DNA of 46,191 nucleotides, taken from the NCBI GenBank assembly GCA_028715705.1, contig JAQURJ010000006.1, forward strand, positions 1 to 46,191. The letters are read 5' to 3'. A program made the translations under genes and the position numbers. The notes under the pieces are model-generated. The model did not search any database, had not been told where the DNA came from, and saw only the letters and a list, made by a program, of their open reading frames with translations. Positions 1 through 27,535 of this stretch are shown here, piece by piece. How positions within the stretch are numbered: the stretch's first letter is position 1; the number at the start of each line of letters is the position of its first letter. This stretch comes from Phycisphaerae bacterium (GTDB lineage: Bacteria; Planctomycetota; Phycisphaerae; Sedimentisphaerales; Anaerobacaceae).

Positions 1-111
1 CGAGTCACTTGGACGTTTACGAGTGCCGAAAAACCGAAATTTTGAAATATTGTGTTCAAAAATTTACTCAAAAAATGTTAACTGAAGTTTTGAGCCTCAA
101 AAATCAAATTA

Positions 112-1308
112 TTAGAGGCTCCCTTTAATCACACAATGCAAAACCCTGTTGACAACCTTGCTTGTCATAGCCTCCATAGCCGCCCTGCATGAGGCGTTTT
201 CTCTTGTTCCGACAAAAAAGTTATCAATTTCCCTGCGGCTGATTTGTGCAAACACGTTTTTCATCTCACCGATAGCCGGCCCGATATTTCTGGTGCCAAG
301 CCAGTCCATAAACCCGCGCACATTTTCATCTATTATCCGCAACGCTTTAGCAATATCATCTTCGCGAGCCTTAAGATTCTGTTGGGCGGCTTCGGAAAGC
401 TCGTCTATACTATAAAGATATATATCTTCTATCTTAATCACATCCGGTGCGAAATTTAGCGGCACCGCAAGGTCGATTATTAATAACGGCCTTTTTTTCC
501 TGTGATGCATTACAGTTCTAAACGTTTTTTCTTCAAAAAGATAATTTTGTGATGCCGCAGAAGCTATGACAATATCGACTTCAGCAAGCAGGCCGTTGAG
601 CTGGTCCCAGTTTATGCTGCTTACATCGTATTTTCTTGCCATTTCAAGACCGCGCTGCGGTGAACAATTGGCGATGGTGATATTTTTACATCCGCTGTGT
701 AAAAGGTGACGAACCAATAGCTCACCCATTTCACCGGCTCCGATGACCGCGACCTTTGCGCAAGTGATGTCATAAAAAAGTTGCATAGCCAGCTCCACTG
801 CGACGCCGGCAACGCTTACCCTTCCGTTCAATATGGAAGTATTCGTAACTATCTTTTTACTGGTTGCAAACGCACAATGAAAAAGACGATTCAGAAATTT
901 TCCGACACTCTTTGTACCGCATGCCAATTTATAACTTTCTTTGACCTGTCCGGTTATCTGTGCTTCTCCAACAACCATACTGTCAAGACTGGCGGTTACC
1001 GTCAGTAGATGTCTTACCGCATCAACATTCTTATAAGCATAGATGAATTCATGAAACCTTTCCCGCGGGATTCCGTGAAAATCAGAAAGGAAACCGGTCA
1101 ATACTTTTTCATCGACCTCTGCTGATTCACTGCATGCGCAATATATTTCAACCCTGTTGCACGTTGACAATAATACAAATTCCGCCCTGTCAAACTTACT
1201 TTTTAGTTCATTTAACGCTTTAATGGTTTCCCCTGCATCAAATGCCAATTTCTCCCTGATATTTACCGGAGTGCTTTTATGATTAAGTCCTGCAACTATT
1301 ATCTTCAT
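112..1308 (-). CDS. hemA: Glutamyl-tRNA reductase
   Basis: This enzyme reduces glutamyl-tRNA(Glu) to glutamate-1-semialdehyde with NADPH, the first committed step of C5 tetrapyrrole synthesis in the cytoplasm. The 398-residue protein begins MKIIVAGLNHKST and has the STCNRVEIY motif whose Cys50 is the catalytic nucleophile. A Rossmann segment (VAVIGAGEMGELLVRHL) lies near residue 185, and a helical dimerisation region forms the C-terminus. The length is slightly below the usual 410-430. It is the last gene of a minus-strand ahbB-like/hemX/hemA run, with 9 bp between it and the hemX-like gene. Co-location with hemC across a divergent spacer supports a tetrapyrrole locus. Identification is firm. 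Confidence 0.96.
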   Translation of the reverse strand: MKIIVAGLNHKSTPVNIREKLAFDAGETIKALNELKSKFDRAEFVLLSTCNRVEIYCACSESAEVDEKVLTGFLSDFHGIPRERFHEFIYAYKNVDAVRHLLTVTASLDSMVVGEAQITGQVKESYKLACGTKSVGKFLNRLFHCAFATSKKIVTNTSILNGRVSVAGVAVELAMQLFYDITCAKVAVIGAGEMGELLVRHLLHSGCKNITIANCSPQRGLEMARKYDVSSINWDQLNGLLAEVDIVIASAASQNYLFEEKTFRTVMHHRKKRPLLIIDLAVPLNFAPDVIKIEDIYLYSIDELSEAAQQNLKAREDDIAKALRIIDENVRGFMDWLGTRNIGPAIGEMKNVFAQISRREIDNFFVGTRENASCRAAMEAMTSKVVNRVLHCVIKGSL

Positions 1309-7171: not shown

Positions 7172-8164
7172 TCACGATTGCAAGACAGCAGGAATTTGCC
7201 GATAATTGCCCTGCTTTTTCCAGATATCCAGAATAAGCTCGTACCGTTTAAGAGGCATACCCGTATAAATACAGTTACTCGTTGAAAAAATGTAACCACC
7301 TCCCGGCATACCGTGCTTTAAAGCATAAGCAGCCGATTCAATAACTTCTTCGTCGGTGCCGGTATCCATTAAGCCGCAGTTGACATTTCCTATTAGGCAG
7401 AGTTTATCGCCGACCAATCGCTTGATTTCAGCGATATCAATTCCGCCCTGAGGGTCGAGACTGTGCAGCGCATGAGGACCGGCCGAAACAAGCGAATCGA
7501 GAATAGGCATAATGTTGCCGTCAGTATGCTTTATAGTATAAAAGCCCATCTGGCGATAGCCGGCAATCAGATTAGTCAAATACGGAGTAACAAATTCGTC
7601 GAACATCGCAGGAGAAAGGAAAGGGCCGCTGTTAAAGCAATAATCACTGCAAAGGGCAAAGCCGTCCAATACGGCGTTTTTTCTAAAAAATTCCGCCCTT
7701 TTTAATGCTTTATCGACAGCAGCTTGTGCCTTATCCTTAAATTGTTGCGGATTATCGGCAAGTTCACTGACAAAATTCATTATCTTATCGCCATTGGGCA
7801 GACCGCAGGTAATGTCCCCTTCTATCATCAAAAAATATTCCATTCCGGAAACTCTGCGGATTTCTTCCAGTGCATGCATAATACCCTGGTCGGAATTGTT
7901 ATCAGTCCAGCCTTTCGGTGAATGAAAGAAAATCGCCGAGTGTTCATACTTTTGCGCGGTAACTACATACAGGCTCGCAATGTCGCGTATATGGAGCTTA
8001 CGTTCATTCAGGGACATCTGGTTCCACTGTTTATAAAATCGATGAGATGGATGAACACGCCCAAAAGCCTCCATAGTCAGAAAAAACACGAGCTCAAAAT
8101 GAGGTACGCGACCTGAAGGCTGTCCGCCCTTGAGAGCCAAAATAAATTTTTCCCTTGGTTTCAT
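7172..8164 (-). CDS. URO-D superfamily protein, not HemE (paralogue 2)
   Basis: The 330-residue protein begins MKPREKFILALKGGQPSGRVPHFEL, a typical URO-D-family start. FLSPAMFDEFVTPYLTNLI and FYTIKHTDGNIMPILDSLV follow, with His213 and Asp215. LHSLDPQGGIDIAEIKRLVGD comes next, then IGNVNCGLM with Cys263. His-x-Asp plus a later Cys fits the zinc site layout of the MtaA-like branch more than HemE, and no MRQAGR-type motif is present. A modest ribosome site (TTTAGGT, 8 nt before ATG) precedes it. It sits 59 bp after the large glycosidase gene and 19 bp before the GH36 gene on the same strand. The substrate is unknown. Confidence 0.8.
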   Translation of the reverse strand: MKPREKFILALKGGQPSGRVPHFELVFFLTMEAFGRVHPSHRFYKQWNQMSLNERKLHIRDIASLYVVTAQKYEHSAIFFHSPKGWTDNNSDQGIMHALEEIRRVSGMEYFLMIEGDITCGLPNGDKIMNFVSELADNPQQFKDKAQAAVDKALKRAEFFRKNAVLDGFALCSDYCFNSGPFLSPAMFDEFVTPYLTNLIAGYRQMGFYTIKHTDGNIMPILDSLVSAGPHALHSLDPQGGIDIAEIKRLVGDKLCLIGNVNCGLMDTGTDEEVIESAAYALKHGMPGGGYIFSTSNCIYTGMPLKRYELILDIWKKQGNYRQIPAVLQS

Positions 8165-8223: not shown

Positions 8224-11200
8224 TTAAAGTTGCTGCTGACAATGCTCAACAGCCGGGTCTGTACAATCAAGCCATTGGCTTGCCAAAATCGCAATATCAA
8301 GCATATTTGTATAACAATCCTTGTTAATATCTCCCGCTGGATAACCAAAATCACCACAACCACCTTCTGATGATGAGGATAAGACTTTTATATCGTCCCA
8401 GTAGCAGTAAGATGCGTTGCTTGCCGACGCACAAAAGAGTTTATCTAGTGATACGGGCGATGCATAGAAAGGCTGGTTAATCAGCAGACCCTGCCAGTTC
8501 GAATCGCCGGTTACTCTCACCCGTGCGTCAAAAGTCCGATTCTGGTAGTTTAAAGTTATCTCAAATTCATACCAAGTTCCATCCTGCAAACCGTTTATCA
8601 GCGTTACATTACCGCCTGAAGTTCGGACATATATTGAATTGGCATCTGCGTCCATCACTACTTCAGTGGCTTTATTACCGGCGGAATCCTGAATGGACAT
8701 ATATCCGTTCCGACTTCCGGAAGTAGGGTCTTTAAGATGCATGCCATACCACCTAACGGTATAGATACTGTTGTTGCCGCCACTACCAAAAACCAGTTTT
8801 GCATATTTACTGCCGCCTGCAGAGCCGTAAGTTCTCCCGCATTGAGTGCCGGCATAAACATTAACATTCGTAACCGCGACCTGATAATCGCTGGCATAAC
8901 CATCATCGGTCCACTGGATACCGGACGCTATATCCGGATCGTCACCATTGGCCCAGCCGCCAACAGGCCAGGTCCCGCTGCCGGCACTGCCCGCCTCGAA
9001 TGTCGTATTAACTTTCTTATTCTGATAAACCGTCTGATTGAGCGGGGTATATAACTTTATATCATAGTACTCTGTTCCTATGCACTCCGCCTGGGAGCCG
9101 GGTTTAGATAAAAACCGGAGTTCATGATTTATTCCGGCTGTTGGCGGCAGCACGACATAACGGACAAATTCGCTGTCCATCATTGAATCATCAGTTGCGA
9201 TATCAACCAAAGTTGTTATGATGTTGCCGTCAATGACCACCTGTTGAATTGATTTACGCAATGACAATCCACCTTCCCCATTGTAATAGGCCTGACATCC
9301 GAGTGGAACAAAATTAATAACAAGCATTCCGCCCTGACTTAAGTCTCCTCGGAACTTCACTTTCAAAGTCGGTAATATCCATGGCGATATGATTTCAGGC
9401 AAATCCTCGCCATAATCGAGGTCGGTGGTATATTCGCTGCCCTGCCATTTTGTTTTCAATCTATCGAAAGTATCAGGCCATAACTGGTTCTCTGTAAAAG
9501 GCGAGTTTCGGGCATAACCGATTTTTACAACCGGATTTTCAGCCTTCCACAGCAAATATGGATAGTTCTGCGTCCGGGTCGGCTCCATCACAAGACGGCT
9601 GTAAGCCGTTTTGGACTGCTGGTCAACACCAACCATCTGACCGAAATGATAGTAGCTTGAAGAAACGGTTTTATTACCATAATCCCAAGTTGCACCAAAA
9701 CCTTTGAAGTAGTTATCAAATCTGGGATGCAGCTGGTTCATCAGGGCGACATACTGTTCGGCATCCGGCATGGCCAAATTGACATAAGAAACGGCTGTAT
9801 CACGATAGGTGGAATTGCCAGTGTTCTGATAGAGGTTATTGTAAATGACCGCATAGTGATAATTCTTGTAAAACTTCGTCAAGGCCAGTGTTGCTTTTGC
9901 CATTGTCTGAAATCTTTCAAGGTCGCTATTGCCCGGCAAAAGCAATGCAGCTTGTTCAAGATTCTGGTTGGCGTCAGCGGCTATATTGATTTCGTTTGTA
10001 AGAGCAAATTGTGAAAGAACCGACGAAAGTGTCGATGTACTTACATTTTGTACGGCACTGGTCTGGGTTAAAACACAAGCCCTATTGTAGTAATAGATGC
10101 TTCGGCCTTTAACAAAATCCATCATTTGATACCAGTTGCTGTAATATTCATTAATTCTGGTGAATGCATCGGTAATTTTGTAAGTATCATCCAAGGCCGC
10201 AGCAACATAAGAATTGGCATCTGCCCCAAACTTGCCGGTAGCCCATTTTATCAGAAAATCATTGGGATCGAAACCATAAGGGTCCCATGCGATTTTTGAT
10301 GATGCCAGCCTGCTCGGCTCGTAAAGCGGCTCCGATTCAAGGATGCCATCACAGGGGCCCTGGCCATTTACCCCATAGCTCGATACAAGGGTCATCGCCC
10401 TTGTTTTTAATTTTGGCGCCGTGTAACAAAGCTGTGCAACACAAGGCTGGCTCATATTGGGATGATACAGATGCCAGCCAAAGGTCTCCATCCGAGGCAT
10501 ATTGATCAAGGACGTAAAGTGGTCCTGCCATAGGTAATCATTACCGGGAGGAACCGTTACCTTTGACCAGAAACGAACGTCTTGCGGAAGGAGACCGGCC
10601 AGAGACGCGAATTCACTGCTCGAACCTAAACCGTGGTCTATAATAATCCACGGACGCAAATAAACTCTGGGAACATCTGATTCATCTGTATATACAATGT
10701 TCGGGTCCAGCCCAACCCCTTGCAACATAGCCTTTCTTACTAAAAGCACATATTCCACAAGCCTGCTTTTATAGGACTGAGATTCACAATCCGTGCAGCC
10801 GCATGAGTAAATACTTTGGTCACCCTCGCCGATGTTCAAAAGAATGCCGGCTATATCATTCACATTGGTGAAAAGCCTCTTGACTTTATTAAATAACAAA
10901 TCTTTGCCGGCCTGTTTTGACGGACACATAAACGGATGATACCATGCGGTTTGACGCGTAGGCGCAACTTCCGGATGTGCGGTGATGAAAGCGTCTCTCG
11001 CCCACAGGGGCAATGACGGCTGGTATGTGAACAGATATATCTTTGTGCCATAACCTGCGGCATCGGATATTTCGCTTTTCAGGTCATTGCGGTTATCCAC
11101 TACCTGGTTGAGATAGTTTTGCTTGAACGCTGCATCTACATCATTGAAAACCTCATTGTTGTCTTCATAATAATTAAAAAGATATGTAGGGCTTGAGCTT

Positions 11201-12927
11201 TCGACTGCCCAGAAATGATCAAAATTTGCACGCTTATCGATGAGGCCCTGTCGAACAGAAAGGACAGGACGGTCTGCAATGTCAAAGGTTTGATTCAAAG
11301 CATCTTCGCCTTCCAGTAAAATTCTGTCCCGCAATTCCATCAGCCCATACAGAACACCTACTTCAGTAGCAGCAGTAACCAGAATACTGTTTGCATCGAT
11401 ATTCTTAATATAAAAACCCTGTTCGCCGACCCAGTTTGCATTGAAAGACAAACCAGCTTGTGTAATCAGCGAAGCAATATTGGGATCGTTATATCTGCCA
11501 GCATAAATAAATTTAGGATTTGGAATAACAACCTTTATATTGTCCCAATAGCCGTAATCCCAGTCATACCAAAAACGGCATTTTACTCTGTCGAGTGAAT
11601 AAGACGAACTGCTGTAAAAATCTTTGTTTGTTACAGTTACAGCCCAGTTCGGCTGACCGGCTAATCTTGCTTTTATGTCAAACTTTTTAGTTATATAGTT
11701 CAATACCACCTCAAATTCATACCAGGCGTTAACAGAAAAGTTATTAATCAAAGTTACCGCTGCCCCGGCACTTCCATAAGTGATTAGTCCTGTTTGATTG
11801 TTCATTCTCACATATGTGGAGATATTTTGTGAATCGTCCATCGCGTAAGTATAATGGCTGCAAATAGTGTTTAAATTCGTGCCGTATTTGGCGAACCACG
11901 TCATTTTATGGCGAGCATCATTTGTTCCACTGCCGAAATCGAGTAAAGTCTCGCCATAAGTGGAACTATTCCCCAAAACCCTGCCGCACTGAGACCCCTG
12001 AACGGCGCCGGTAGTAACAACCGTATGAGTGCCGGTTGCCGAACGCGACCATTGAACCCCGGAAGCTATATCAGGGTCGTCGCCATTGCCCCAGATTCCA
12101 TTGCCCGGCCATGTGTTTGGACCGGCGCTATTCGGTTCAAATGTTGTATCGGCTAAAGTTAATGCCACTGTTTCGCCCAGATAATGGGTATTGCCTATCT
12201 GAGAAGCAATGTCGGATATGCCTGCAAGGGTATCAGGCTCTATAAACACCTGCGATGAGCCGCCGGCCTGAAAGCCGCCTGTTATAACCAGATTATCTAT
12301 AGACAGCTTGCCGCTTGTAGTTCTTTCAAACTGCAGTTCGCCGTAAGGCTGGTCGGTCCAGTACTTGATGCGGTAATTTTCAGCTATCAGTATGTCGTCA
12401 ATGTATAAATTATAATAACGCATATCATTAGCATTTATTGATATCCGGAATTTATAAGTCTGGCCGGCGTTATAAGGCATAAGGTCCACCCGAGTGGTAT
12501 AGTGATAGGCAAATATCTGACCGTTGTCCGCAAAGCCTACGGAAGGACCTATTTTCCCTGTAATATCCATTATTTTGAAGCCGGCATATTTGTTGGTGTA
12601 CTCTACTCGGGCATCGAACTCGACCTGAAGCCACTCGCTGCCTTTGAATGTCTTTCTGACATCCGCATTACCCTCGCCATAATACAAAATAAGGGATTTA
12701 GTTCCACCAATTACATAAGTAGGGTTATTGGTAACCTCGCCGTTTGTCGTTATCACCCGCCAGCCATCCTGGCCATTAACATCACCAAAAGTAAAAGTTT
12801 CAAAATCAGTACTGTAGAGCAAAGTACGCGCATAACCAGCCGACACCGACAGCAATACCACTATAAGCAAATATATGGATGTTAATTTCATGGTTTTCAG
12901 TTCTTTTTTATATCGTTTTTGCAACAT
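8224..12927 (-). CDS. Large secreted GH67/GH20-like putative glycosidase with three lectin-like modules and a dockerin-like tail (gene A)
   Basis: About 1567 residues. The signal peptide ends near SVSAGYA. Lectin-like module type 1 (about 34-219, DFETFTFGDVNGQDGW) comes first. A GH N-terminal alpha/beta domain follows, split in two (about 227-259 and 470-536, ending LYGLMELRDRI) by a type 2 module (about 260-469, TTFEPNSAG…WYEFEVVLNY…YWDNIKVV). Next is the catalytic-like region with LLNIGEGDQSIYSCGCTDCES and METFGWHLYHPN. A second type 2 module and a C-terminal tail GDINKDCYTNMLDIAILASQW complete it. GEG and the glycine-rich context resemble the acid residue of GH67 alpha-glucuronidases, but the family is not certain. 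I chose the ATG at 12927 because AGGA lies 5 nt upstream. TTG/ATG codons at 12960-12945 lack a ribosome site, and ATG 12891 is another option. Paralogous to gene B. Confidence 0.72.
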   Translation of the reverse strand: MLQKRYKKELKTMKLTSIYLLIVVLLSVSAGYARTLLYSTDFETFTFGDVNGQDGWRVITTNGEVTNNPTYVIGGTKSLILYYGEGNADVRKTFKGSEWLQVEFDARVEYTNKYAGFKIMDITGKIGPSVGFADNGQIFAYHYTTRVDLMPYNAGQTYKFRISINANDMRYYNLYIDDILIAENYRIKYWTDQPYGELQFERTTSGKLSIDNLVITGGFQAGGSSQVFIEPDTLAGISDIASQIGNTHYLGETVALTLADTTFEPNSAGPNTWPGNGIWGNGDDPDIASGVQWSRSATGTHTVVTTGAVQGSQCGRVLGNSSTYGETLLDFGSGTNDARHKMTWFAKYGTNLNTICSHYTYAMDDSQNISTYVRMNNQTGLITYGSAGAAVTLINNFSVNAWYEFEVVLNYITKKFDIKARLAGQPNWAVTVTNKDFYSSSSYSLDRVKCRFWYDWDYGYWDNIKVVIPNPKFIYAGRYNDPNIASLITQAGLSFNANWVGEQGFYIKNIDANSILVTAATEVGVLYGLMELRDRILLEGEDALNQTFDIADRPVLSVRQGLIDKRANFDHFWAVESSSPTYLFNYYEDNNEVFNDVDAAFKQNYLNQVVDNRNDLKSEISDAAGYGTKIYLFTYQPSLPLWARDAFITAHPEVAPTRQTAWYHPFMCPSKQAGKDLLFNKVKRLFTNVNDIAGILLNIGEGDQSIYSCGCTDCESQSYKSRLVEYVLLVRKAMLQGVGLDPNIVYTDESDVPRVYLRPWIIIDHGLGSSSEFASLAGLLPQDVRFWSKVTVPPGNDYLWQDHFTSLINMPRMETFGWHLYHPNMSQPCVAQLCYTAPKLKTRAMTLVSSYGVNGQGPCDGILESEPLYEPSRLASSKIAWDPYGFDPNDFLIKWATGKFGADANSYVAAALDDTYKITDAFTRINEYYSNWYQMMDFVKGRSIYYYNRACVLTQTSAVQNVSTSTLSSVLSQFALTNEINIAADANQNLEQAALLLPGNSDLERFQTMAKATLALTKFYKNYHYAVIYNNLYQNTGNSTYRDTAVSYVNLAMPDAEQYVALMNQLHPRFDNYFKGFGATWDYGNKTVSSSYYHFGQMVGVDQQSKTAYSRLVMEPTRTQNYPYLLWKAENPVVKIGYARNSPFTENQLWPDTFDRLKTKWQGSEYTTDLDYGEDLPEIISPWILPTLKVKFRGDLSQGGMLVINFVPLGCQAYYNGEGGLSLRKSIQQVVIDGNIITTLVDIATDDSMMDSEFVRYVVLPPTAGINHELRFLSKPGSQAECIGTEYYDIKLYTPLNQTVYQNKKVNTTFEAGSAGSGTWPVGGWANGDDPDIASGIQWTDDGYASDYQVAVTNVNVYAGTQCGRTYGSAGGSKYAKLVFGSGGNNSIYTVRWYGMHLKDPTSGSRNGYMSIQDSAGNKATEVVMDADANSIYVRTSGGNVTLINGLQDGTWYEFEITLNYQNRTFDARVRVTGDSNWQGLLINQPFYASPVSLDKLFCASASNASYCYWDDIKVLSSSSEGGCGDFGYPAGDINKDCYTNMLDIAILASQWLDCTDPAVEHCQQQL

Positions 12928-15900
12928 TTCCATCCTACCTTTCATACTTATCATCGTCAAATACTAATACGCTGTAAACCATCAATCGCCTGTAAGGTGT
13001 TTCCTTGAGACGGCTTATCCCATTCATCAAAAACCGCGGCTATATTGTCAAAAGAAATGCCTTTTCCCCACTCACACTGTGCAATTAAGCCTCTGGGAGA
13101 GCCGCTAAAGGCTTTCTTTACTCTTCTGACCGCATTTCGTACATCTTCCTGTGACCCAAAGGGCAAAATATTCTGACGGTCAATTTCCCCCCAGAAAGTT
13201 ATTCTGCCGGAAAATTGCTTTCCCAACTGCTCAATATCCATACAAAATAACTGGGAATTAACGGCATCAACACCGATTTCAATTAAATCAGGAAATAAAG
13301 GCATAATAAAGCCGTCCGAATGAAAGAAAGCATACTTGCCCTTTTCGTGAAGTATATCGCAGTAATCCTTATAAAGGGGCTTAAAAAGTTCTCGCCACAT
13401 TTCCAGCGAAATAAGAAGGGATGTTTGCGAACCCCAGTCATCTAAAAAACCGACGGCATCTACATCGGTCTGCGCTAATATCCGCAATCCCCTGCAATAG
13501 AAATCGTGCACCATATCGATAAGATCGCGAACCTCTTTTGTGCCATAAGCAAAGTCTATTAAGAGCTTTTCCGTGCCGCGGAGAAATTGCATGCGTTCAA
13601 ACGGACGGACGCCTATGCCACCCTTTATAAATTTGTCCTTTATCTGCGAACAAAAATCGTTCACCTTTCCGGTGTCTGCATTATCAAGAAGCTCAAACGG
13701 CGGTTTATAATGAGCCAAATCCGACCAGTTCTCAATGATATGCTCCTTAACCTCGCCTGCAACTCCCGGCTCTGCGGAATACCACCTGCATCCCCATTCA
13801 TCAGTGTAAAAACCAACATTGCCGGGAGTGCCGCTGGCACGGGCAGACTTTCCATAAATAGTCGGAGAATTTGCAATATCTAAAGGAAACAGCCTTAACA
13901 TTTCATCCAGCCGGTCCTGGCAAAACATATTTACCCACGGCAGCGTCCACAAATCACGCGGCGCCCTGTCGACAGGTCTATGGTTTAAAGTCGCTATTAC
14001 TCGTTCACGTGAATTCATCTTTTTAATTTCATAAAAAACATATCAATATTCATATCCCCAGAGGGTAGAACCGGCAGCTTTTTCACGGTCATACGGACTT
14101 GTTGTATCAGGATTCTGTATGTATATCTTTTGAGGTACACGAGTATAAATTCTTGCTGAATATAACTCCGCTCCGGTACAGCCCGGCAAAGATTCGATGG
14201 ATAGTTCATGCACGGCTGTATCCGGCAGAACCTGTACAGGCAGCAACTGCACATAACGGATGAACTCACTGTCCTCGATAGTATCATCAGTAGCAATATC
14301 AATTAACGTCTTGACAGGCTTATCGTCCAGCGAAAGTTTTAATATTGATTTTCGCATCGACTCCTCGGACTCCGCATCACTCCTAGCTTTTCCGCCTAAA
14401 GGGACATATCGTAAAACAAGCATCGCTCCGCCGCTCAGGTCGGCCTGAAATTTAATACGCAGCTTCGGAAGTATCCAGGGCGACAGAACCGCCGGCAAAT
14501 CTTGGCTGTTGCCAGCCAAGTCCAAGACAAATTCATCGCCCTTCCACTTTCTGAGAAGCTCCGGATAAATGTTTTCCCATTTCATTTCCCAAGGCCAGGG
14601 AGCATATCGCTTGTAGCCTATCTTCTTGTGAGGATTTTGCAGTTCCAGAAGAAGATAAGGAAATTTTTCGCTGCGCAAAGACTCCATCACAATACGGTTG
14701 TACCCATTCCAGCACTGCTGGCTGACAGTAGCCAATTGGCCGAAAATATATGGAACAAATTTCGGGAAAGTATTGCCCGTCCAGCTTGTTTCAATCTTCT
14801 CAAAGTAACCGCTGAACTCTGGATGTATCTTATGCATCCAGTCGATATAAGCTTCCATATCCGGAACAGCCTTTTCGATGTGCTGAACGGCAAGTTTATG
14901 ATATGCCTGACTGCGGGCGCCAGCAGTTTCGCTGACATTATTATATATGAGAGCGAAATGATAGTTGTGATAAAATCGCGTCAGCGCCGCCGTTGCCTTG
15001 CCCATCATCCAGAACCTTTTAAGAACATTATCTTCCGGCTTAAGGGGCATCGCTTTGGTAAGATTCTTTTCTGCGTCTTCGGCTATTCTGATTTCTTCGG
15101 CAAGCCTGAATTTCGACAGCACAGTCTCAATCGTTCCTTCAGTAACATCGGCTACTTCTTTGTTCTGTTGCGCTGCCATTCCTCTACTGTAACAGTGAGT
15201 CTTTTTACCTTTAACAAAGTTCAGCATGTGAAACCAGTTGGTATTGGTCGGCAAAATTGTAAATGCGTCGGTTATCCTGTATGTATCCTTTAACGCTGCC
15301 GCCACATGCACCCCGGCCTCTTCGCCAAACCGTCGCTGTGCCCATTTCAGAAGAAATTCGTTAGAATCGAAACGGTACGGGTTCCACGCAATTTTAAGGC
15401 CGGCAAGACGGCTCGGCTCATATAAAAGATCATTATCATCGTCCGGACTTTGGCACTGCGACTGTCCCTTCAATCCGAGAGCCGCCAGCTTTACAGCACG
15501 GGCTTTAAGTTTAGGGGCTGTGTAGCATAATTGCGCTACGCAGGGCTGATTCATATTCGGATGGTATATATGCCAGCCGAAAGTCTCCATACGAGGCATT
15601 TTTATGTATGGATTGAATTGGTCGTTCCAGAGATAGTCGCCTCCCGGAGGAACTGTTATTTTCGACCAGAAGCGAATGTCTTCCGGCAACTTGCCGGACA
15701 GAACCGTAAATTTCTTACTGTCGCCATCGAAACCGTGATCGACAATCTGCCAGGGACGAAGATAGATTATGGCATCCGGCGTACTTTCATGAATTGCCTT
15801 GCGGATGAGCATAAGATACTCGATAAGCCTCTGTTCATAGGGCTGAGATTCGCATTTTTGGCATCCGCAGGAAAATATTGACTGCCATCCTTCGCCGAAA

Positions 15901-16389
15901 CACAATACCAAACCGTTAATACCGGAAACATCTCTGAAGAGATCCCTCATTTTCATATACAGTAAATCTTTGCTGACCTGATTCGAAGGACAGATAAACG
16001 GATGCCATTCTTTTTCCTGACGGGCAAATTTCACTTCCGGATGAGCGGCGATAAAATTTTCGTGCATCTTGGGCGGCAATGTCGGCTGAAACATGAACAA
16101 GTATGTCTTCGCACCATAAGCCTGTGCATCTGAAATAGCCCGTTTCAATTTCTCACGGTTAGCCTTTACTTTTTCAATATACTGTCTGCGAAAAACCTCA
16201 TCGTTGCCGAATATCTCCGGTGAATCTTCATACGAATATAGGGGAGTAGTACGCTCGTCAGCCCAGAAAGTTGTAAAATTCGCTCTTCTTTTGACATCGC
16301 CTATTCGAACCTCAAAAATCGGCCGGTCTTTGTAGTCAAACTTTTCCTTCAATATTTGCTGGCCATCTTCCTCGATTCTGTCCCGAAGC
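11336..16389. repeat. 5,054-bp direct tandem duplication, copy 1
   Basis: The unit runs from inside gene A, through the URO-D gene, to inside the gene for the chimeric glycosidase. It repeats with an exact offset of 5,054 bp in copy 2 (16390-21443). All stretches and encoded proteins I compared were identical. It begins with TCCATCAG (11336-11343). Confidence 0.93.
12957..14018 (-). CDS. URO-D superfamily protein, not HemE (paralogue 3, copy 1)
   Basis: The 353-residue protein starts MNSRERVIATLNHRPVDRAPRDLW, the typical opening of uncharacterised URO-D proteins. It has DDWGSQTSLLISLEMWRELFKPLYKDY and YAFFHSDGFIMPLFPDLIEIGVDAVN, with His233 and Asp235. GRITFWGEIDRQNILPFGSQEDVRNAV follows. 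The HemE Arg motif is absent, and the later Cys of methyltransferase relatives is replaced (GEIDRQ). It lies inside the tandem duplication and is identical in sequence to the copy at 18011-19072. Spacing is 24 bp from the upstream glycosidase stop, and it ends about 30 bp before the chosen start of gene A, so all are likely on one transcript. Function unknown. Confidence 0.82.
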   Translation of the reverse strand: MNSRERVIATLNHRPVDRAPRDLWTLPWVNMFCQDRLDEMLRLFPLDIANSPTIYGKSARASGTPGNVGFYTDEWGCRWYSAEPGVAGEVKEHIIENWSDLAHYKPPFELLDNADTGKVNDFCSQIKDKFIKGGIGVRPFERMQFLRGTEKLLIDFAYGTKEVRDLIDMVHDFYCRGLRILAQTDVDAVGFLDDWGSQTSLLISLEMWRELFKPLYKDYCDILHEKGKYAFFHSDGFIMPLFPDLIEIGVDAVNSQLFCMDIEQLGKQFSGRITFWGEIDRQNILPFGSQEDVRNAVRRVKKAFSGSPRGLIAQCEWGKGISFDNIAAVFDEWDKPSQGNTLQAIDGLQRISI

Positions 16390-17981
16390 TCCATCAGCCC
16401 ATACAGAACACCTACTTCAGTAGCAGCAGTAACCAGAATACTGTTTGCATCGATATTCTTAATATAAAAACCCTGTTCGCCGACCCAGTTTGCATTGAAA
16501 GACAAACCAGCTTGTGTAATCAGCGAAGCAATATTGGGATCGTTATATCTGCCAGCATAAATAAATTTAGGATTTGGAATAACAACCTTTATATTGTCCC
16601 AATAGCCGTAATCCCAGTCATACCAAAAACGGCATTTTACTCTGTCGAGTGAATAAGACGAACTGCTGTAAAAATCTTTGTTTGTTACAGTTACAGCCCA
16701 GTTCGGCTGACCGGCTAATCTTGCTTTTATGTCAAACTTTTTAGTTATATAGTTCAATACCACCTCAAATTCATACCAGGCGTTAACAGAAAAGTTATTA
16801 ATCAAAGTTACCGCTGCCCCGGCACTTCCATAAGTGATTAGTCCTGTTTGATTGTTCATTCTCACATATGTGGAGATATTTTGTGAATCGTCCATCGCGT
16901 AAGTATAATGGCTGCAAATAGTGTTTAAATTCGTGCCGTATTTGGCGAACCACGTCATTTTATGGCGAGCATCATTTGTTCCACTGCCGAAATCGAGTAA
17001 AGTCTCGCCATAAGTGGAACTATTCCCCAAAACCCTGCCGCACTGAGACCCCTGAACGGCGCCGGTAGTAACAACCGTATGAGTGCCGGTTGCCGAACGC
17101 GACCATTGAACCCCGGAAGCTATATCAGGGTCGTCGCCATTGCCCCAGATTCCATTGCCCGGCCATGTGTTTGGACCGGCGCTATTCGGTTCAAATGTTG
17201 TATCGGCTAAAGTTAATGCCACTGTTTCGCCCAGATAATGGGTATTGCCTATCTGAGAAGCAATGTCGGATATGCCTGCAAGGGTATCAGGCTCTATAAA
17301 CACCTGCGATGAGCCGCCGGCCTGAAAGCCGCCTGTTATAACCAGATTATCTATAGACAGCTTGCCGCTTGTAGTTCTTTCAAACTGCAGTTCGCCGTAA
17401 GGCTGGTCGGTCCAGTACTTGATGCGGTAATTTTCAGCTATCAGTATGTCGTCAATGTATAAATTATAATAACGCATATCATTAGCATTTATTGATATCC
17501 GGAATTTATAAGTCTGGCCGGCGTTATAAGGCATAAGGTCCACCCGAGTGGTATAGTGATAGGCAAATATCTGACCGTTGTCCGCAAAGCCTACGGAAGG
17601 ACCTATTTTCCCTGTAATATCCATTATTTTGAAGCCGGCATATTTGTTGGTGTACTCTACTCGGGCATCGAACTCGACCTGAAGCCACTCGCTGCCTTTG
17701 AATGTCTTTCTGACATCCGCATTACCCTCGCCATAATACAAAATAAGGGATTTAGTTCCACCAATTACATAAGTAGGGTTATTGGTAACCTCGCCGTTTG
17801 TCGTTATCACCCGCCAGCCATCCTGGCCATTAACATCACCAAAAGTAAAAGTTTCAAAATCAGTACTGTAGAGCAAAGTACGCGCATAACCAGCCGACAC
17901 CGACAGCAATACCACTATAAGCAAATATATGGATGTTAATTTCATGGTTTTCAGTTCTTTTTTATATCGTTTTTGCAACAT
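14043..17981 (-). CDS. Chimeric putative glycosidase: N-terminus of gene A fused to catalytic part of gene B
   Basis: About 1312 residues. The first ~536 residues (signal peptide, type 1 module, split N-terminal domain with inserted type 2 module, up to MELRDRI) are identical to gene A. The rest (EEDGQQILKEKFDYKDRPIFEV to WGYEY) is identical to gene B. The switch occurs at DNA positions 16390-16397 (TCCATCAG), a sequence shared by both parents, and the frame is kept because the parents are aligned paralogues. The catalytic-like region keeps FGEGWQSIFSCGCQKCES and METFGWHIYHPN. Unlike gene A it lacks the C-terminal type 2 module and dockerin-like tail. Unlike gene B it has gene A's signal peptide, not a lipoprotein signal. 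The start follows that of gene A (ATG 17981). It could be an assembly artefact (see findings). Confidence 0.7.
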   Translation of the reverse strand: MLQKRYKKELKTMKLTSIYLLIVVLLSVSAGYARTLLYSTDFETFTFGDVNGQDGWRVITTNGEVTNNPTYVIGGTKSLILYYGEGNADVRKTFKGSEWLQVEFDARVEYTNKYAGFKIMDITGKIGPSVGFADNGQIFAYHYTTRVDLMPYNAGQTYKFRISINANDMRYYNLYIDDILIAENYRIKYWTDQPYGELQFERTTSGKLSIDNLVITGGFQAGGSSQVFIEPDTLAGISDIASQIGNTHYLGETVALTLADTTFEPNSAGPNTWPGNGIWGNGDDPDIASGVQWSRSATGTHTVVTTGAVQGSQCGRVLGNSSTYGETLLDFGSGTNDARHKMTWFAKYGTNLNTICSHYTYAMDDSQNISTYVRMNNQTGLITYGSAGAAVTLINNFSVNAWYEFEVVLNYITKKFDIKARLAGQPNWAVTVTNKDFYSSSSYSLDRVKCRFWYDWDYGYWDNIKVVIPNPKFIYAGRYNDPNIASLITQAGLSFNANWVGEQGFYIKNIDANSILVTAATEVGVLYGLMELRDRIEEDGQQILKEKFDYKDRPIFEVRIGDVKRRANFTTFWADERTTPLYSYEDSPEIFGNDEVFRRQYIEKVKANREKLKRAISDAQAYGAKTYLFMFQPTLPPKMHENFIAAHPEVKFARQEKEWHPFICPSNQVSKDLLYMKMRDLFRDVSGINGLVLCFGEGWQSIFSCGCQKCESQPYEQRLIEYLMLIRKAIHESTPDAIIYLRPWQIVDHGFDGDSKKFTVLSGKLPEDIRFWSKITVPPGGDYLWNDQFNPYIKMPRMETFGWHIYHPNMNQPCVAQLCYTAPKLKARAVKLAALGLKGQSQCQSPDDDNDLLYEPSRLAGLKIAWNPYRFDSNEFLLKWAQRRFGEEAGVHVAAALKDTYRITDAFTILPTNTNWFHMLNFVKGKKTHCYSRGMAAQQNKEVADVTEGTIETVLSKFRLAEEIRIAEDAEKNLTKAMPLKPEDNVLKRFWMMGKATAALTRFYHNYHFALIYNNVSETAGARSQAYHKLAVQHIEKAVPDMEAYIDWMHKIHPEFSGYFEKIETSWTGNTFPKFVPYIFGQLATVSQQCWNGYNRIVMESLRSEKFPYLLLELQNPHKKIGYKRYAPWPWEMKWENIYPELLRKWKGDEFVLDLAGNSQDLPAVLSPWILPKLRIKFQADLSGGAMLVLRYVPLGGKARSDAESEESMRKSILKLSLDDKPVKTLIDIATDDTIEDSEFIRYVQLLPVQVLPDTAVHELSIESLPGCTGAELYSARIYTRVPQKIYIQNPDTTSPYDREKAAGSTLWGYEY

Positions 17982-20900
17982 TTCCATCCTACCTTTCATA
18001 CTTATCATCGTCAAATACTAATACGCTGTAAACCATCAATCGCCTGTAAGGTGTTTCCTTGAGACGGCTTATCCCATTCATCAAAAACCGCGGCTATATT
18101 GTCAAAAGAAATGCCTTTTCCCCACTCACACTGTGCAATTAAGCCTCTGGGAGAGCCGCTAAAGGCTTTCTTTACTCTTCTGACCGCATTTCGTACATCT
18201 TCCTGTGACCCAAAGGGCAAAATATTCTGACGGTCAATTTCCCCCCAGAAAGTTATTCTGCCGGAAAATTGCTTTCCCAACTGCTCAATATCCATACAAA
18301 ATAACTGGGAATTAACGGCATCAACACCGATTTCAATTAAATCAGGAAATAAAGGCATAATAAAGCCGTCCGAATGAAAGAAAGCATACTTGCCCTTTTC
18401 GTGAAGTATATCGCAGTAATCCTTATAAAGGGGCTTAAAAAGTTCTCGCCACATTTCCAGCGAAATAAGAAGGGATGTTTGCGAACCCCAGTCATCTAAA
18501 AAACCGACGGCATCTACATCGGTCTGCGCTAATATCCGCAATCCCCTGCAATAGAAATCGTGCACCATATCGATAAGATCGCGAACCTCTTTTGTGCCAT
18601 AAGCAAAGTCTATTAAGAGCTTTTCCGTGCCGCGGAGAAATTGCATGCGTTCAAACGGACGGACGCCTATGCCACCCTTTATAAATTTGTCCTTTATCTG
18701 CGAACAAAAATCGTTCACCTTTCCGGTGTCTGCATTATCAAGAAGCTCAAACGGCGGTTTATAATGAGCCAAATCCGACCAGTTCTCAATGATATGCTCC
18801 TTAACCTCGCCTGCAACTCCCGGCTCTGCGGAATACCACCTGCATCCCCATTCATCAGTGTAAAAACCAACATTGCCGGGAGTGCCGCTGGCACGGGCAG
18901 ACTTTCCATAAATAGTCGGAGAATTTGCAATATCTAAAGGAAACAGCCTTAACATTTCATCCAGCCGGTCCTGGCAAAACATATTTACCCACGGCAGCGT
19001 CCACAAATCACGCGGCGCCCTGTCGACAGGTCTATGGTTTAAAGTCGCTATTACTCGTTCACGTGAATTCATCTTTTTAATTTCATAAAAAACATATCAA
19101 TATTCATATCCCCAGAGGGTAGAACCGGCAGCTTTTTCACGGTCATACGGACTTGTTGTATCAGGATTCTGTATGTATATCTTTTGAGGTACACGAGTAT
19201 AAATTCTTGCTGAATATAACTCCGCTCCGGTACAGCCCGGCAAAGATTCGATGGATAGTTCATGCACGGCTGTATCCGGCAGAACCTGTACAGGCAGCAA
19301 CTGCACATAACGGATGAACTCACTGTCCTCGATAGTATCATCAGTAGCAATATCAATTAACGTCTTGACAGGCTTATCGTCCAGCGAAAGTTTTAATATT
19401 GATTTTCGCATCGACTCCTCGGACTCCGCATCACTCCTAGCTTTTCCGCCTAAAGGGACATATCGTAAAACAAGCATCGCTCCGCCGCTCAGGTCGGCCT
19501 GAAATTTAATACGCAGCTTCGGAAGTATCCAGGGCGACAGAACCGCCGGCAAATCTTGGCTGTTGCCAGCCAAGTCCAAGACAAATTCATCGCCCTTCCA
19601 CTTTCTGAGAAGCTCCGGATAAATGTTTTCCCATTTCATTTCCCAAGGCCAGGGAGCATATCGCTTGTAGCCTATCTTCTTGTGAGGATTTTGCAGTTCC
19701 AGAAGAAGATAAGGAAATTTTTCGCTGCGCAAAGACTCCATCACAATACGGTTGTACCCATTCCAGCACTGCTGGCTGACAGTAGCCAATTGGCCGAAAA
19801 TATATGGAACAAATTTCGGGAAAGTATTGCCCGTCCAGCTTGTTTCAATCTTCTCAAAGTAACCGCTGAACTCTGGATGTATCTTATGCATCCAGTCGAT
19901 ATAAGCTTCCATATCCGGAACAGCCTTTTCGATGTGCTGAACGGCAAGTTTATGATATGCCTGACTGCGGGCGCCAGCAGTTTCGCTGACATTATTATAT
20001 ATGAGAGCGAAATGATAGTTGTGATAAAATCGCGTCAGCGCCGCCGTTGCCTTGCCCATCATCCAGAACCTTTTAAGAACATTATCTTCCGGCTTAAGGG
20101 GCATCGCTTTGGTAAGATTCTTTTCTGCGTCTTCGGCTATTCTGATTTCTTCGGCAAGCCTGAATTTCGACAGCACAGTCTCAATCGTTCCTTCAGTAAC
20201 ATCGGCTACTTCTTTGTTCTGTTGCGCTGCCATTCCTCTACTGTAACAGTGAGTCTTTTTACCTTTAACAAAGTTCAGCATGTGAAACCAGTTGGTATTG
20301 GTCGGCAAAATTGTAAATGCGTCGGTTATCCTGTATGTATCCTTTAACGCTGCCGCCACATGCACCCCGGCCTCTTCGCCAAACCGTCGCTGTGCCCATT
20401 TCAGAAGAAATTCGTTAGAATCGAAACGGTACGGGTTCCACGCAATTTTAAGGCCGGCAAGACGGCTCGGCTCATATAAAAGATCATTATCATCGTCCGG
20501 ACTTTGGCACTGCGACTGTCCCTTCAATCCGAGAGCCGCCAGCTTTACAGCACGGGCTTTAAGTTTAGGGGCTGTGTAGCATAATTGCGCTACGCAGGGC
20601 TGATTCATATTCGGATGGTATATATGCCAGCCGAAAGTCTCCATACGAGGCATTTTTATGTATGGATTGAATTGGTCGTTCCAGAGATAGTCGCCTCCCG
20701 GAGGAACTGTTATTTTCGACCAGAAGCGAATGTCTTCCGGCAACTTGCCGGACAGAACCGTAAATTTCTTACTGTCGCCATCGAAACCGTGATCGACAAT
20801 CTGCCAGGGACGAAGATAGATTATGGCATCCGGCGTACTTTCATGAATTGCCTTGCGGATGAGCATAAGATACTCGATAAGCCTCTGTTCATAGGGCTGA

Positions 20901-21443
20901 GATTCGCATTTTTGGCATCCGCAGGAAAATATTGACTGCCATCCTTCGCCGAAACACAATACCAAACCGTTAATACCGGAAACATCTCTGAAGAGATCCC
21001 TCATTTTCATATACAGTAAATCTTTGCTGACCTGATTCGAAGGACAGATAAACGGATGCCATTCTTTTTCCTGACGGGCAAATTTCACTTCCGGATGAGC
21101 GGCGATAAAATTTTCGTGCATCTTGGGCGGCAATGTCGGCTGAAACATGAACAAGTATGTCTTCGCACCATAAGCCTGTGCATCTGAAATAGCCCGTTTC
21201 AATTTCTCACGGTTAGCCTTTACTTTTTCAATATACTGTCTGCGAAAAACCTCATCGTTGCCGAATATCTCCGGTGAATCTTCATACGAATATAGGGGAG
21301 TAGTACGCTCGTCAGCCCAGAAAGTTGTAAAATTCGCTCTTCTTTTGACATCGCCTATTCGAACCTCAAAAATCGGCCGGTCTTTGTAGTCAAACTTTTC
21401 CTTCAATATTTGCTGGCCATCTTCCTCGATTCTGTCCCGAAGC
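16390..21443. repeat. 5,054-bp direct tandem duplication, copy 2
   Basis: Second copy of 11336-16389 in direct orientation with no spacer. The junction (16390-16397) reads TCCATCAG, also found at both outer ends (11336-11343 and 21444-21451), as expected for a microhomology-mediated or unequal exchange event between genes A and B. Confidence 0.93.
18011..19072 (-). CDS. URO-D superfamily protein, not HemE (paralogue 3, copy 2)
   Basis: The 353-residue protein is identical at the amino-acid level to the one at 12957-14018, and the DNA looks identical, because it lies in the second tandem copy. The same features apply: the MNSRERVIATLNHRPVDRAP start, FFHSDGF with His233 and Asp235, and no HemE signature. 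It follows gene B by 24 bp on the same strand. If the duplication is real the cell carries two doses of this enzyme. If it is an assembly error only one gene exists. Confidence 0.8.
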   Translation of the reverse strand: MNSRERVIATLNHRPVDRAPRDLWTLPWVNMFCQDRLDEMLRLFPLDIANSPTIYGKSARASGTPGNVGFYTDEWGCRWYSAEPGVAGEVKEHIIENWSDLAHYKPPFELLDNADTGKVNDFCSQIKDKFIKGGIGVRPFERMQFLRGTEKLLIDFAYGTKEVRDLIDMVHDFYCRGLRILAQTDVDAVGFLDDWGSQTSLLISLEMWRELFKPLYKDYCDILHEKGKYAFFHSDGFIMPLFPDLIEIGVDAVNSQLFCMDIEQLGKQFSGRITFWGEIDRQNILPFGSQEDVRNAVRRVKKAFSGSPRGLIAQCEWGKGISFDNIAAVFDEWDKPSQGNTLQAIDGLQRISI

Positions 21444-21814
21444 TCCATCAGGCCATAGAGAATTCCTGTGTCAGTATTTGCTGTTATCAGAATAGTGCCA
21501 TTCTCAAGAGTTTTTATATAAAAACCCTGCTTGCCGAGCTCATCCTTTTGGACTTCAAGCCGAGACGTTTCTGCAATGGGAGTGATATAACTGCTGCCAA
21601 ACCTGCCCGCAACAATGATAATATCTCCGGTTTTCCCTATACTGGCCGATTCGGCAAGGTTGTGAATGCTGCCAATCTCTGCGGCGGTCTTTTCTATTCC
21701 CTTAATTACGCCAGCTTCGATAAATACGAGAATTTCAGCCTTTGCGCATCCGGCAATAAATACCAGAGAAATAAAGACGGCAAACAGTATTTTGCTTAGT
21801 TGTTGTGCAGTCAT
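19097..21814 (-). CDS. GH67/GH20-like putative glycosidase lipoprotein (gene B)
   Basis: This 905-residue protein is a paralogue of gene A without lectin modules. The N-terminus MTAQQLSKILFAVFISLVFIAGC has a lipobox (IAGC, Cys23), so it is probably a lipoprotein. Residues 27-128 form the uninterrupted N-terminal alpha/beta domain (VFIEAGVIKGIEKTAAEIG…GILYGLMELRDRI) seen in GH67/GH20-type enzymes. The catalytic-like region contains FGEGWQSIFSCGCQKCES with Glu290 and a C-x-C-x2-C cluster (298, 300, 303), IYLRPWQIVDHG, and METFGWHIYHPN. LKIAWNPYRFDSNEFLLKWAQRRFG follows, resembling the C-terminal helical part of GH67. It starts 45 bp after the stop of the upstream GH67-like gene. An alpha-glucuronidase or hexosaminidase-type activity is a guess; the family fit is partial. 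Confidence 0.75.
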   Translation of the reverse strand: MTAQQLSKILFAVFISLVFIAGCAKAEILVFIEAGVIKGIEKTAAEIGSIHNLAESASIGKTGDIIIVAGRFGSSYITPIAETSRLEVQKDELGKQGFYIKTLENGTILITANTDTGILYGLMELRDRIEEDGQQILKEKFDYKDRPIFEVRIGDVKRRANFTTFWADERTTPLYSYEDSPEIFGNDEVFRRQYIEKVKANREKLKRAISDAQAYGAKTYLFMFQPTLPPKMHENFIAAHPEVKFARQEKEWHPFICPSNQVSKDLLYMKMRDLFRDVSGINGLVLCFGEGWQSIFSCGCQKCESQPYEQRLIEYLMLIRKAIHESTPDAIIYLRPWQIVDHGFDGDSKKFTVLSGKLPEDIRFWSKITVPPGGDYLWNDQFNPYIKMPRMETFGWHIYHPNMNQPCVAQLCYTAPKLKARAVKLAALGLKGQSQCQSPDDDNDLLYEPSRLAGLKIAWNPYRFDSNEFLLKWAQRRFGEEAGVHVAAALKDTYRITDAFTILPTNTNWFHMLNFVKGKKTHCYSRGMAAQQNKEVADVTEGTIETVLSKFRLAEEIRIAEDAEKNLTKAMPLKPEDNVLKRFWMMGKATAALTRFYHNYHFALIYNNVSETAGARSQAYHKLAVQHIEKAVPDMEAYIDWMHKIHPEFSGYFEKIETSWTGNTFPKFVPYIFGQLATVSQQCWNGYNRIVMESLRSEKFPYLLLELQNPHKKIGYKRYAPWPWEMKWENIYPELLRKWKGDEFVLDLAGNSQDLPAVLSPWILPKLRIKFQADLSGGAMLVLRYVPLGGKARSDAESEESMRKSILKLSLDDKPVKTLIDIATDDTIEDSEFIRYVQLLPVQVLPDTAVHELSIESLPGCTGAELYSARIYTRVPQKIYIQNPDTTSPYDREKAAGSTLWGYEY

Positions 21815-25368: not shown

Positions 25369-26076
25369 TCAGCTCTCGTTACGACGGCGTTTCAACGCCA
25401 GTATGCCGGCAATGCCCAAACCGAGTATAGAAACGGTAGCAGGTTCCGGAATAAGCCCAGAGTAGATCGCTACATTATCGACATTCACTGCGGTAGATGT
25501 ATATCTCATGATTCGTAACGTACCAATATCGGTTGCGGAGCCGTCGTAGAAAGCATAATCATCAGCCTTCAGGACATTATCTACATACACATCGTAAGTC
25601 TGGGCGGTAATATCCGCAAGAATCCTGATATCATACGTCTGGGCAGCATATGTCATAAGATTAGTCGCGGTCGTGCCGTTGTAGGCCGTTATATACCCGG
25701 TACCGTTAAATAGCACACGCGCTGCTGTACGAGTAGTAGCGGCATTCAGTAAATCAAATTGCGATGTCCTGTTTGTGATGAGTGCCGTGGTCTTAAACGC
25801 AAGTGTAGCAGCGGTGGTCTGGGAGGCAAAGCTCTTTCGGACGTCTGCGTTAGCTCCGGAGTAATACACCTTAAGCGATTGTGCACCGGCAATTACACCC
25901 GTACCAGTAAAGATATCGCCGGCTCCTGCCGTGATAGTCCAGCCGTCCTGACCAGCTACAGTGCCGGTCGTAAAGGTAGGCGACTCAAAGCCTGTCGAGT
26001 AAATAAGCGTTGCCAGACTTGGAGAAGCAAACATTGCCGCTCCTAAAACAACTACTAAAACAATTAACTTCTTCAT
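25369..26076 (-). CDS. PEP-CTERM sorted secreted protein with one lectin-like type 1 module
   Basis: The 235-residue protein has a signal peptide (MKKLIVLVVVLGAAMFASPSLA). One type 1 beta-sandwich module follows (about 23-208: STGFESPTFTTGTVAGQDGW … DIRILADITAQTYDVYVDNVLKADDYAFYDG). The C-terminal PEP-CTERM sorting signal is PEPATVSILGLGIAGILALKRRR. PEP-CTERM proteins are processed by exosortase and linked to exopolysaccharide-producing envelopes. The DNA of its module is nearly identical to the second module of the adjacent 441-residue protein. A strong GGAGG site precedes the ATG by 9 nt. No catalytic residues are evident, so a carbohydrate-binding or structural role is inferred. Confidence 0.85.
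   Translation of the reverse strand: MKKLIVLVVVLGAAMFASPSLATLIYSTGFESPTFTTGTVAGQDGWTITAGAGDIFTGTGVIAGAQSLKVYYSGANADVRKSFASQTTAATLAFKTTALITNRTSQFDLLNAATTRTAARVLFNGTGYITAYNGTTATNLMTYAAQTYDIRILADITAQTYDVYVDNVLKADDYAFYDGSATDIGTLRIMRYTSTAVNVDNVAIYSGLIPEPATVSILGLGIAGILALKRRRNES
25475..25996. repeat. Near-identical module repeat, copy 1
   Basis: About 520 bp matches 26364-26885 in direct orientation (offset 889 bp) with only scattered substitutions. It encodes the type 1 module of the PEP-CTERM protein. Similarity stops sharply before the different C-terminal tails. Confidence 0.85.
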
Positions 26077-26209: not shown

Positions 26210-27535
26210 TCACAGACAGTTGGAATCGCTTGGCTGCGTACAGTTGAGCCAGCCGTCAGCAACGCTGCCAAAGTCGATAAAGTCCACATAACAGTCCTCA
26301 TTAAGGTCAGCAGGCAGATAGCCCCAGTCACCGCATCCTATTAAACCGCCATAAATCGTCAAATCATCGACATTCACTGCGACAGACGTGTATCTCATGA
26401 TACGTACCGTACCAATATCGGTTGCGAGGTTGTCGTAGAAAGCATAATCATTAGCCTTCAGGACATTATCTACATACACATCGTAAGTCTTGGCGGCAAT
26501 ATCCGCAACAATCCTGATATCATACGTCTGGGCAGCATATGTCATAAGATCAGTCGCGGTCGTGCCGTTGTAGGCCGTTATATACCCGGTACCGTTAAAT
26601 AGCACACGCGCTGCTGTACGAGTAGTAGTGGCATTCAGTAAATCAAATTGCGATGTCCTGTTTGTGTTGAGTGCCGTGGTCTTAAACGCAAGTGTAGCAG
26701 TGGTGGTCTGGGAGGCAAAGCTCTTTCGGACATCTGCGTTAGCTCCGGAGTAATACACCTTAAGCGATTGTGCACCGGCAATTACACCCGTACCAGTAAA
26801 GATATCGCCGGCTCCTGCCGTGATAGTCCAGCCGTCCTGACCAGCTACAGTGCCGGTCGTAAAGGTAGGTGACTCGAAGCCGGTCGTGTAAAGTGTATCA
26901 TAAACGGCACTTGAAGTTATGGACAGATCGTCGATATACACGGGGGAGGTTGTATACCTCTGTATGCGAAACAAGCCGAGAGAACTTGTACCATTATAGA
27001 AGGCAAAATTATCCGCTTTCAGTACGTCATCCACATATAAATCATAAGTTTGATTAAAGATATCCACCTCGAGCCGGACATTATATACGATATGGCCGCT
27101 ATATGCCCCCACAGCGGTTCCAGTAGTACTATCATAGGCAACTATATTTCCCGTATCCTTAAACTCAACACGCGGACCTGTATGAGTACCAGCAGAGTTC
27201 ATCAGGTCAAGCCTCACGGTTTTGTTATTAACACTTGTATCGATTGAATACTCGACGGTAATGGTAATACCGCTCTGAGGAGTAAAACTTTTTCGGACAT
27301 CAGCTCCAGAGGTATACACCATAAGCGACTTTGTTCCATTAATCGCCCATGGGCCGTCATTAATATCACCAGCGGGAGCTGTAACAACCCAGCCATCCTG
27401 TCCATTTACATCGCCCGCTGTAAAACTTTCAAAGTCGGTCTGGTATATTGTAGTCCCTGCATAAACTGCCGGTGAAACCAGAAAAACCATGCCGCTTAAA
27501 ACAGTCAGTAAAACAACAAACTTTTTCATCTTCAT
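26210..27535 (-). CDS. Secreted protein with two type 1 lectin-like modules and a dockerin-like tail
   Basis: The 441-residue protein has a signal peptide (MKMKKFVVLLTVLSGMVFLVSPAVYA). Two type 1 modules follow: the first at about 27-210 (DFESFTAGDVNGQDGW), the second at about 215-395 (GFESPTFTTGTVAGQDGW). The C-terminal tail is DLNEDCYVDFIDFGSVADGW, with an EF-hand-like Asp pattern and flanking cysteines. The second module is almost identical in DNA to the neighbouring PEP-CTERM gene, while the first is closer to the module in gene A. GGAG 8 nt before the ATG supports the start. There is no enzyme domain. It probably binds glycans and docks to a surface structure. Confidence 0.82.
   Translation of the reverse strand: MKMKKFVVLLTVLSGMVFLVSPAVYAGTTIYQTDFESFTAGDVNGQDGWVVTAPAGDINDGPWAINGTKSLMVYTSGADVRKSFTPQSGITITVEYSIDTSVNNKTVRLDLMNSAGTHTGPRVEFKDTGNIVAYDSTTGTAVGAYSGHIVYNVRLEVDIFNQTYDLYVDDVLKADNFAFYNGTSSLGLFRIQRYTTSPVYIDDLSITSSAVYDTLYTTGFESPTFTTGTVAGQDGWTITAGAGDIFTGTGVIAGAQSLKVYYSGANADVRKSFASQTTTATLAFKTTALNTNRTSQFDLLNATTTRTAARVLFNGTGYITAYNGTTATDLMTYAAQTYDIRIVADIAAKTYDVYVDNVLKANDYAFYDNLATDIGTVRIMRYTSVAVNVDDLTIYGGLIGCGDWGYLPADLNEDCYVDFIDFGSVADGWLNCTQPSDSNCL
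26364..26885. repeat. Near-identical module repeat, copy 2
   Basis: Partner of 25475-25996. It encodes the second type 1 module of the 441-residue protein. Differences are few and include synonymous changes. Confidence 0.85.

What the first reader, a model, noticed from the sequence alone, without database searches (positions are those of the whole stretch)
11336..21451. Exact 5,054-bp tandem duplication joined at 8-bp microhomology
Positions 11336-16389 and 16390-21443 repeat with a constant offset, and I saw no difference in any stretch compared. TCCATCAG stands at the left end, at the junction and at the right end. It arose between two paralogous glycosidase genes (A and B), doubling the URO-D gene and making a hybrid enzyme. 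Perfect identity implies a very recent event or an assembly error.
Basis: seen in the sequence. Interest (0 to 1): 0.72.

Follow-up and report, generated by a model that had tools for sequence, protein, structure and literature searches.

The report
Loop-assembled tandem duplication with hybrid glycosidase
A 5-kb stretch is written twice in a row in this draft genome of an uncultured bacterium, but the draft came from short reads that cannot measure such a repeat, so only the 246-base joint (which fuses two sister sugar-cleaving enzyme genes in frame) carries information, and the likely cause is an ordinary, possibly transient gene duplication.

Summary
The repeat is real in the sequence: 11336-16397 equals 16390-21451 without one mismatch (5,062 bp, period 5,054, 8-bp TCCATCAG at the joint). 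On the minus strand it gives B > URO-D > hybrid > URO-D > A. The hybrid is an open 1,323-aa frame that carries A's N-terminal modules on B's catalytic part. The inference "perfect identity = very recent" fails. The window is one whole contig of a 186-contig MAG. In the 75% of that MAG I could read, exact repeats pile up at 121-127 bp, mostly at contig ends, and then stop: the mark of a short-read de Bruijn assembly with k about 127. The only longer ones are 137 bp and this one. A 5-kb repeat cannot have been bridged, so the second copy is a loop walked once more: copies identical by construction, copy number unmeasured. Two copies differ from one by only 119 128-mers (16271-16516). The joint lies at a homologous codon of the paralogues, so unequal (homeologous) recombination is likelier than random microhomology. 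A relative has plain B > A pairs and no hybrid. Most likely this is a genuine tandem duplication of unknown copy number and frequency; a chimeric-read artefact remains possible. Ordinary; low interest.

The parts
11336..16389 (.). repeat unit, copy 1 (5,054 bp; exact identity runs on to 16397)
16390..21443 (.). repeat unit, copy 2 (exact identity runs on to 21451)
16390..16397 (.). 8-bp TCCATCAG shared at the joint (also at 11336-11343 and 21444-21451); CTGATGGA in coding sense, same codon phase in A and B
16271..16516 (.). 246-bp joint path: the only stretch whose 128-mers (119 of them) distinguish two copies from one
8224..12960 (-). gene A, 1,578 aa: N-terminal Sialidase-like_CBM, further insert, GH67N/uronidase-like catalytic part, C-terminal CBM-like and dockerin-like tail
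   Evidence: tail read by eye
12957..14018 (-). URO-D family (MtaA/CmuA-like) gene, copy 1, 353 aa
14043..18014 (-). hybrid gene, 1,323 aa: A residues 1-547 then B's remainder (last 787 residues identical to B), open frame; lacks A's C-terminal CBM and dockerin-like tail
18011..19072 (-). URO-D family gene, copy 2, identical to copy 1
19097..21814 (-). gene B, 905 aa, Glyco_hydro_67N hit; weak alpha-galacturonidase-like hit; model most like GH115/GH138/GH67

Best explanation
At the level of the assembly, the contig is one walk through a k~127 short-read graph in which a single 5-kb edge (N-terminal part of A, URO-D, most of B) has a self-loop through a 246-bp joint; the assembler passed the loop once, so two identical copies were printed. 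At the level of biology, the joint most probably comes from a genuine tandem duplication in some or all cells of the population. It formed by unequal recombination between sister copies of the locus at a short homeologous stretch of paralogues A and B, leaving B > URO-D > A/B hybrid > URO-D > A. Shown: the exact repeat, the assembly type, the homologous and in-frame joint, and the plain B > A order in a relative. Inferred: that the joint existed in cells, how it formed, and that the hybrid could be made as a protein (A's carbohydrate-binding and N-terminal domains on B's catalytic barrel). Unknown: copy number, age and frequency.
For: Exact repeat. De Bruijn signature: over 1.76 Mb the exact repeats cluster at 121-127 bp, 49 of 51 such pairs with a partner at a contig end, with only 137 bp and 5,062 bp above that; 186 contigs, largest 69 kb, smallest 2.5 kb. 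[quoted passage not shown] One copy and two copies differ by 119 128-mers only, so sequence across the joint must have been in the data; an 8-bp overlap is far below any k used. The joint is at A residue 540 / B residue 122, same codon phase, in a conserved motif; only 29 of 236 shared stretches of 8 bp or more between A and B lie at homologous positions. Relative G074 has B directly followed by A, no hybrid. Duplications between flanking homologous sequences are a standard bacterial route (PMC11721125).
Against: No reads were available, so depth and joint coverage are untested. Template-switch chimeras made in library amplification also prefer homologous positions. The shared exact stretch is only 8 bp, short for RecA-type pairing. 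The 29/236 argument is a modest likelihood ratio (about 8), not proof. The MAG has 6.6% estimated contamination.
Confidence: 0.62

Rival explanations
1. Artefact: the joint comes from chimeric molecules made in library amplification (template switching between A and B), which the assembler kept as a loop; no cell carries the duplication.
For: All novelty lies in 246 bp; the joint sits in a homologous block, where template switching is also favoured; relatives lack it; metagenome graphs are known to hold many spurious cycles (PMC9104695).
Against: A k~127 path needs 119 consecutive 128-mers, which 150-base reads supply only as several staggered molecules (one 250-base read could suffice; read length is unknown); assemblers remove weakly covered joints (established knowledge). 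The reciprocal product, expected at similar frequency from template switching, is not in the assembly, though it might simply have been pruned.
Confidence: 0.25
2. One reading: a fixed, very recent duplication with exactly two identical copies.
For: Exact identity over 5,062 bp; all reading frames intact.
Against: Identity and copy number are imposed by the assembly method, so neither is evidence; fixation is untested. It is one special case of the best explanation.
Confidence: 0.2
3. The joint comes from an excised 5-kb circle (unit closed on itself by recombination), the chromosome having one copy.
For: Circle closure gives exactly the same joint and graph loop (follows).
Against: No replication, integrase or mobile gene lies in the unit; such a circle would be lost by dilution. 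The assembly holds no reciprocal deletion joint.
Confidence: 0.05
4. Random end-joining or slippage at an 8-bp microhomology, with the homologous position a coincidence.
For: The exact shared stretch is only 8 bp, and there are 236 shared stretches of 8 bp or more between A and B.
Against: Only 29 of those 236 are at homologous positions; the joint is in a 109-bp block of 72% identity.
Confidence: 0.15

Closest known systems
Bacterial tandem duplication by unequal recombination between direct repeats or paralogues (e.g. between rrn operons; reviewed in PMC11721125)
   Same: Direct head-to-tail copies, the join point between the two flanking homologous sequences, a hybrid of the two at the inner joint, an expected reciprocal deletion product.
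   Different: The homology here is short and diverged (109 bp at 72%), and existence in cells is not shown because the assembly cannot resolve it.
Graph loops / phantom cycles in metagenome assemblies (PMC9104695)
   Same: A repeat edge with a self-loop; the number of turns cannot be known from the graph.
   Different: Here the loop was printed inside a long linear contig rather than as a circular contig.
GH67/GH115/GH138 uronidase-type glycoside hydrolases (paralogues A and B)
   Same: PF03648 hit at B's N-terminal domain; Foldseek best hits GH115, GH138 and GH67.
   Different: About 10-12% identity; B reaches only 28 bits against NF049878's cut-off of 1300; no activity known.

Membership tests
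Tandem duplication by unequal recombination between paralogues | two head-to-tail copies with a constant offset | tested here: met
   (in the assembly; not in reads)
Tandem duplication by unequal recombination between paralogues | joint at homologous positions of two flanking paralogues | tested here: met
Tandem duplication by unequal recombination between paralogues | raised read depth and reads across the joint | not testable with these tools
   no reads held
Tandem duplication by unequal recombination between paralogues | single-copy ancestral order in relatives | tested here: inconclusive
   B > A pairs without hybrid in G074, but they also lack the URO-D gene and belong to another family; the window's genus has no other genome held
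Assembly-graph loop in a k-mer assembly | repeats above k unresolved elsewhere; contig ends share about k bases | tested here: met
Assembly-graph loop in a k-mer assembly | copies exactly identical | tested here: met
Uroporphyrinogen decarboxylase superfamily (URO-D, MtaA/CmuA side) | PF01208 above the gathering score | tested here: met
   55.3 bits against 23.9; MtaA/CmuA subfamily cut-off not reached (37.8 against 235.4)
Glycoside hydrolase family 67 | PF03648 N-terminal domain plus GH67 catalytic domains | tested here: not met
   only the N-terminal domain, marginal in B (24.7 bits against 24.3); no GH67 catalytic Pfam hit

The most novel reading that the evidence does not exclude
The locus is a natural amplification hot spot: in a living, uncultured population paralogue-mediated unequal recombination keeps making and losing copies of the unit, and its hybrid enzyme (A's carbohydrate-binding N-terminus on B's catalytic barrel, without A's dockerin-like tail) is a new, selected module combination.
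Probability: 0.07. Interest if true: 0.45.

Novelty: new member of a known kind. Interest (0 to 1): 0.16.

Why it matters
If the duplication is in cells, it is a snapshot of how a new multi-domain glycosidase can arise in one step in a carbohydrate-degrading bacterium. The more general use is a warning: in short-read MAGs an exact multi-kb tandem repeat is a graph loop, so its perfect identity and copy number must not be read as evidence of age. The repeat-length spectrum of the MAG itself shows this without any reads.

Tried and rejected
Close relatives: the genus has no other genome held. A single-sequence scan of genome contigs gave none; a profile scan gave G074's loci and one further species, L140, where B stands without A. 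In 161 genomes of the order only G000 and G074 encode close relatives of B. The reciprocal deletion joint is not in the assembly. A long-read or hybrid assembly was rejected because repeats above 127 bp are unresolved elsewhere. The structure model of B has modest confidence (pLDDT 63.8, pTM 0.47), so I use it only for the rough domain boundary and fold class. The exSPAnder paper was not held, so how a particular assembler walks a loop rests on general knowledge. Which assembler was used (metaSPAdes, a SPAdes bin reassembly, other) was not determined.

Full report
OBSERVATION. At offset 5,054 the two copies agree over 11336-16397 = 16390-21451, 5,062 bp with no mismatch; TCCATCAG stands at 11336, 16390 and 21444. 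Outside this the match drops to 46-48% in the next 250 bp, which is the in-register remainder of the two paralogues, and then to background. There is no N in the window.

ANATOMY. All genes involved lie on the minus strand, in transcription order B (21814-19097, 905 aa), URO-D family (19072-18011), hybrid (18014-14043, 1,323 aa), URO-D family (14018-12957), A (12960-8224, 1,578 aa). The URO-D genes are PF01208 members nearest to MtaA/CmuA-type models but below their cut-offs. B matches the GH67 N-terminal domain marginally; an AlphaFold model of modest confidence is most like GH115, GH138 and GH67 enzymes at 10-12% identity, so A and B are best called uronidase-like glycoside hydrolases of unassigned family. 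A and B share 50% of residues over 822 aligned positions and 58% of bases. A also has an N-terminal sialidase-type CBM and, read by eye, a second CBM-like region and a dockerin-like tail. The hybrid is identical to A for its first 547 residues and to B for its last 787. Its joint (A residue 540, B residue 122) falls in helix 115-132 of the B model, in the N-terminal domain just before the presumed catalytic barrel. It is therefore near a domain border, and the hybrid lacks A's C-terminal modules.

ASSEMBLY. The window is the whole of contig C6 of a 186-contig, 2.33-Mb MAG (95.7% complete, 6.6% contamination). I read 1.76 Mb of it (111 contigs) and listed all exact repeats of 60 bp or more. The lengths scatter from 60 to 100, then pile up at 121-127 (51 pairs, 49 of them with a partner at a contig end), and stop. 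Only two pairs are longer, 137 bp and 5,062 bp, both inside this contig. That is the signature of a de Bruijn graph with k about 127 built from short reads. Long or hybrid reads would have resolved many longer repeats. [quoted passage not shown] So the two copies were most probably printed from one edge. Their identity and their number are products of the method. The inference from perfect identity to recency falls away.

WHAT THE DATA CAN SAY. Rewriting the contig with one copy changes nothing but 119 128-mers at 16271-16516. An 8-bp overlap cannot join k-mers of 127, so sequence across the joint must have been in the reads. It is A-N-terminus/B-C-terminus, the product of duplication or circle closure, not of deletion; the reciprocal B/A joint is not in the assembly. 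Between A and B there are 236 maximal shared stretches of 8 bp or more, of which 29 are at homologous positions. The joint is one of these, in the same codon phase, in a 109-bp block of 72% identity that encodes YGLMELRDR, invariant in the A and B proteins of this genome and of G074. This favours homology-guided exchange by a factor of about eight over random microhomology. It does not separate recombination in cells from template switching in a tube, which also follows homology.

RELATIVES. No other genome of the genus is held. Among 161 genomes of the order only G074 encodes close relatives. G074 has B followed by A at three loci, adjacent without URO-D in at least two of them, and no hybrid. 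This makes A and B the old genes and the hybrid the derived one, as expected. But G074 is too distant to show the state just before the event.

JUDGEMENT. The feature is real in the sequence. The likeliest reading is a genuine tandem duplication, of unknown copy number and frequency, by unequal recombination between paralogues (0.62). The main rival is a chimeric joint (0.25). Both are ordinary. The lasting point is methodological: the repeat-length spectrum of the MAG itself tells that the identity of the copies is not evidence of age.

Noticed in passing
window 25451-26000 against 26340-26889: A second, diverged tandem duplication (offset 889, about 93-98% identical over roughly 530 bp, exact for 137 bp) between a 235-aa PEP-CTERM/CBM gene and a 441-aa gene with two sialidase-like CBM stretches; its copies differ, so unlike the 5-kb repeat it was truly resolved.
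   Followed up: partly
window 1-125; G000 contigs C118, C83, C77: The window's left end shares 124-125 bp with the ends of three other contigs: an unresolved repeat at the contig border, typical of the assembly graph.
   Followed up: partly
L030/L139, L137/L141, L138/L142 (G074): G074 carries several diverged B > A glycosidase pairs with further A-like genes nearby, so this enzyme pair has multiplied repeatedly in the order.
   Followed up: partly
window 7172-8164 and 12957-14018: Two different URO-D/MtaA-like genes flank gene A in a sugar-degradation cluster with LacI, sodium:solute symporter, GH38 and melibiase-like genes; why corrinoid or methyl-transfer-type proteins sit there is unexplained.
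   Followed up: no
L031 (G000:C106:1119-3650): A distant member (33% identity to B) of the A/B enzyme family elsewhere in the same genome.
   Followed up: no
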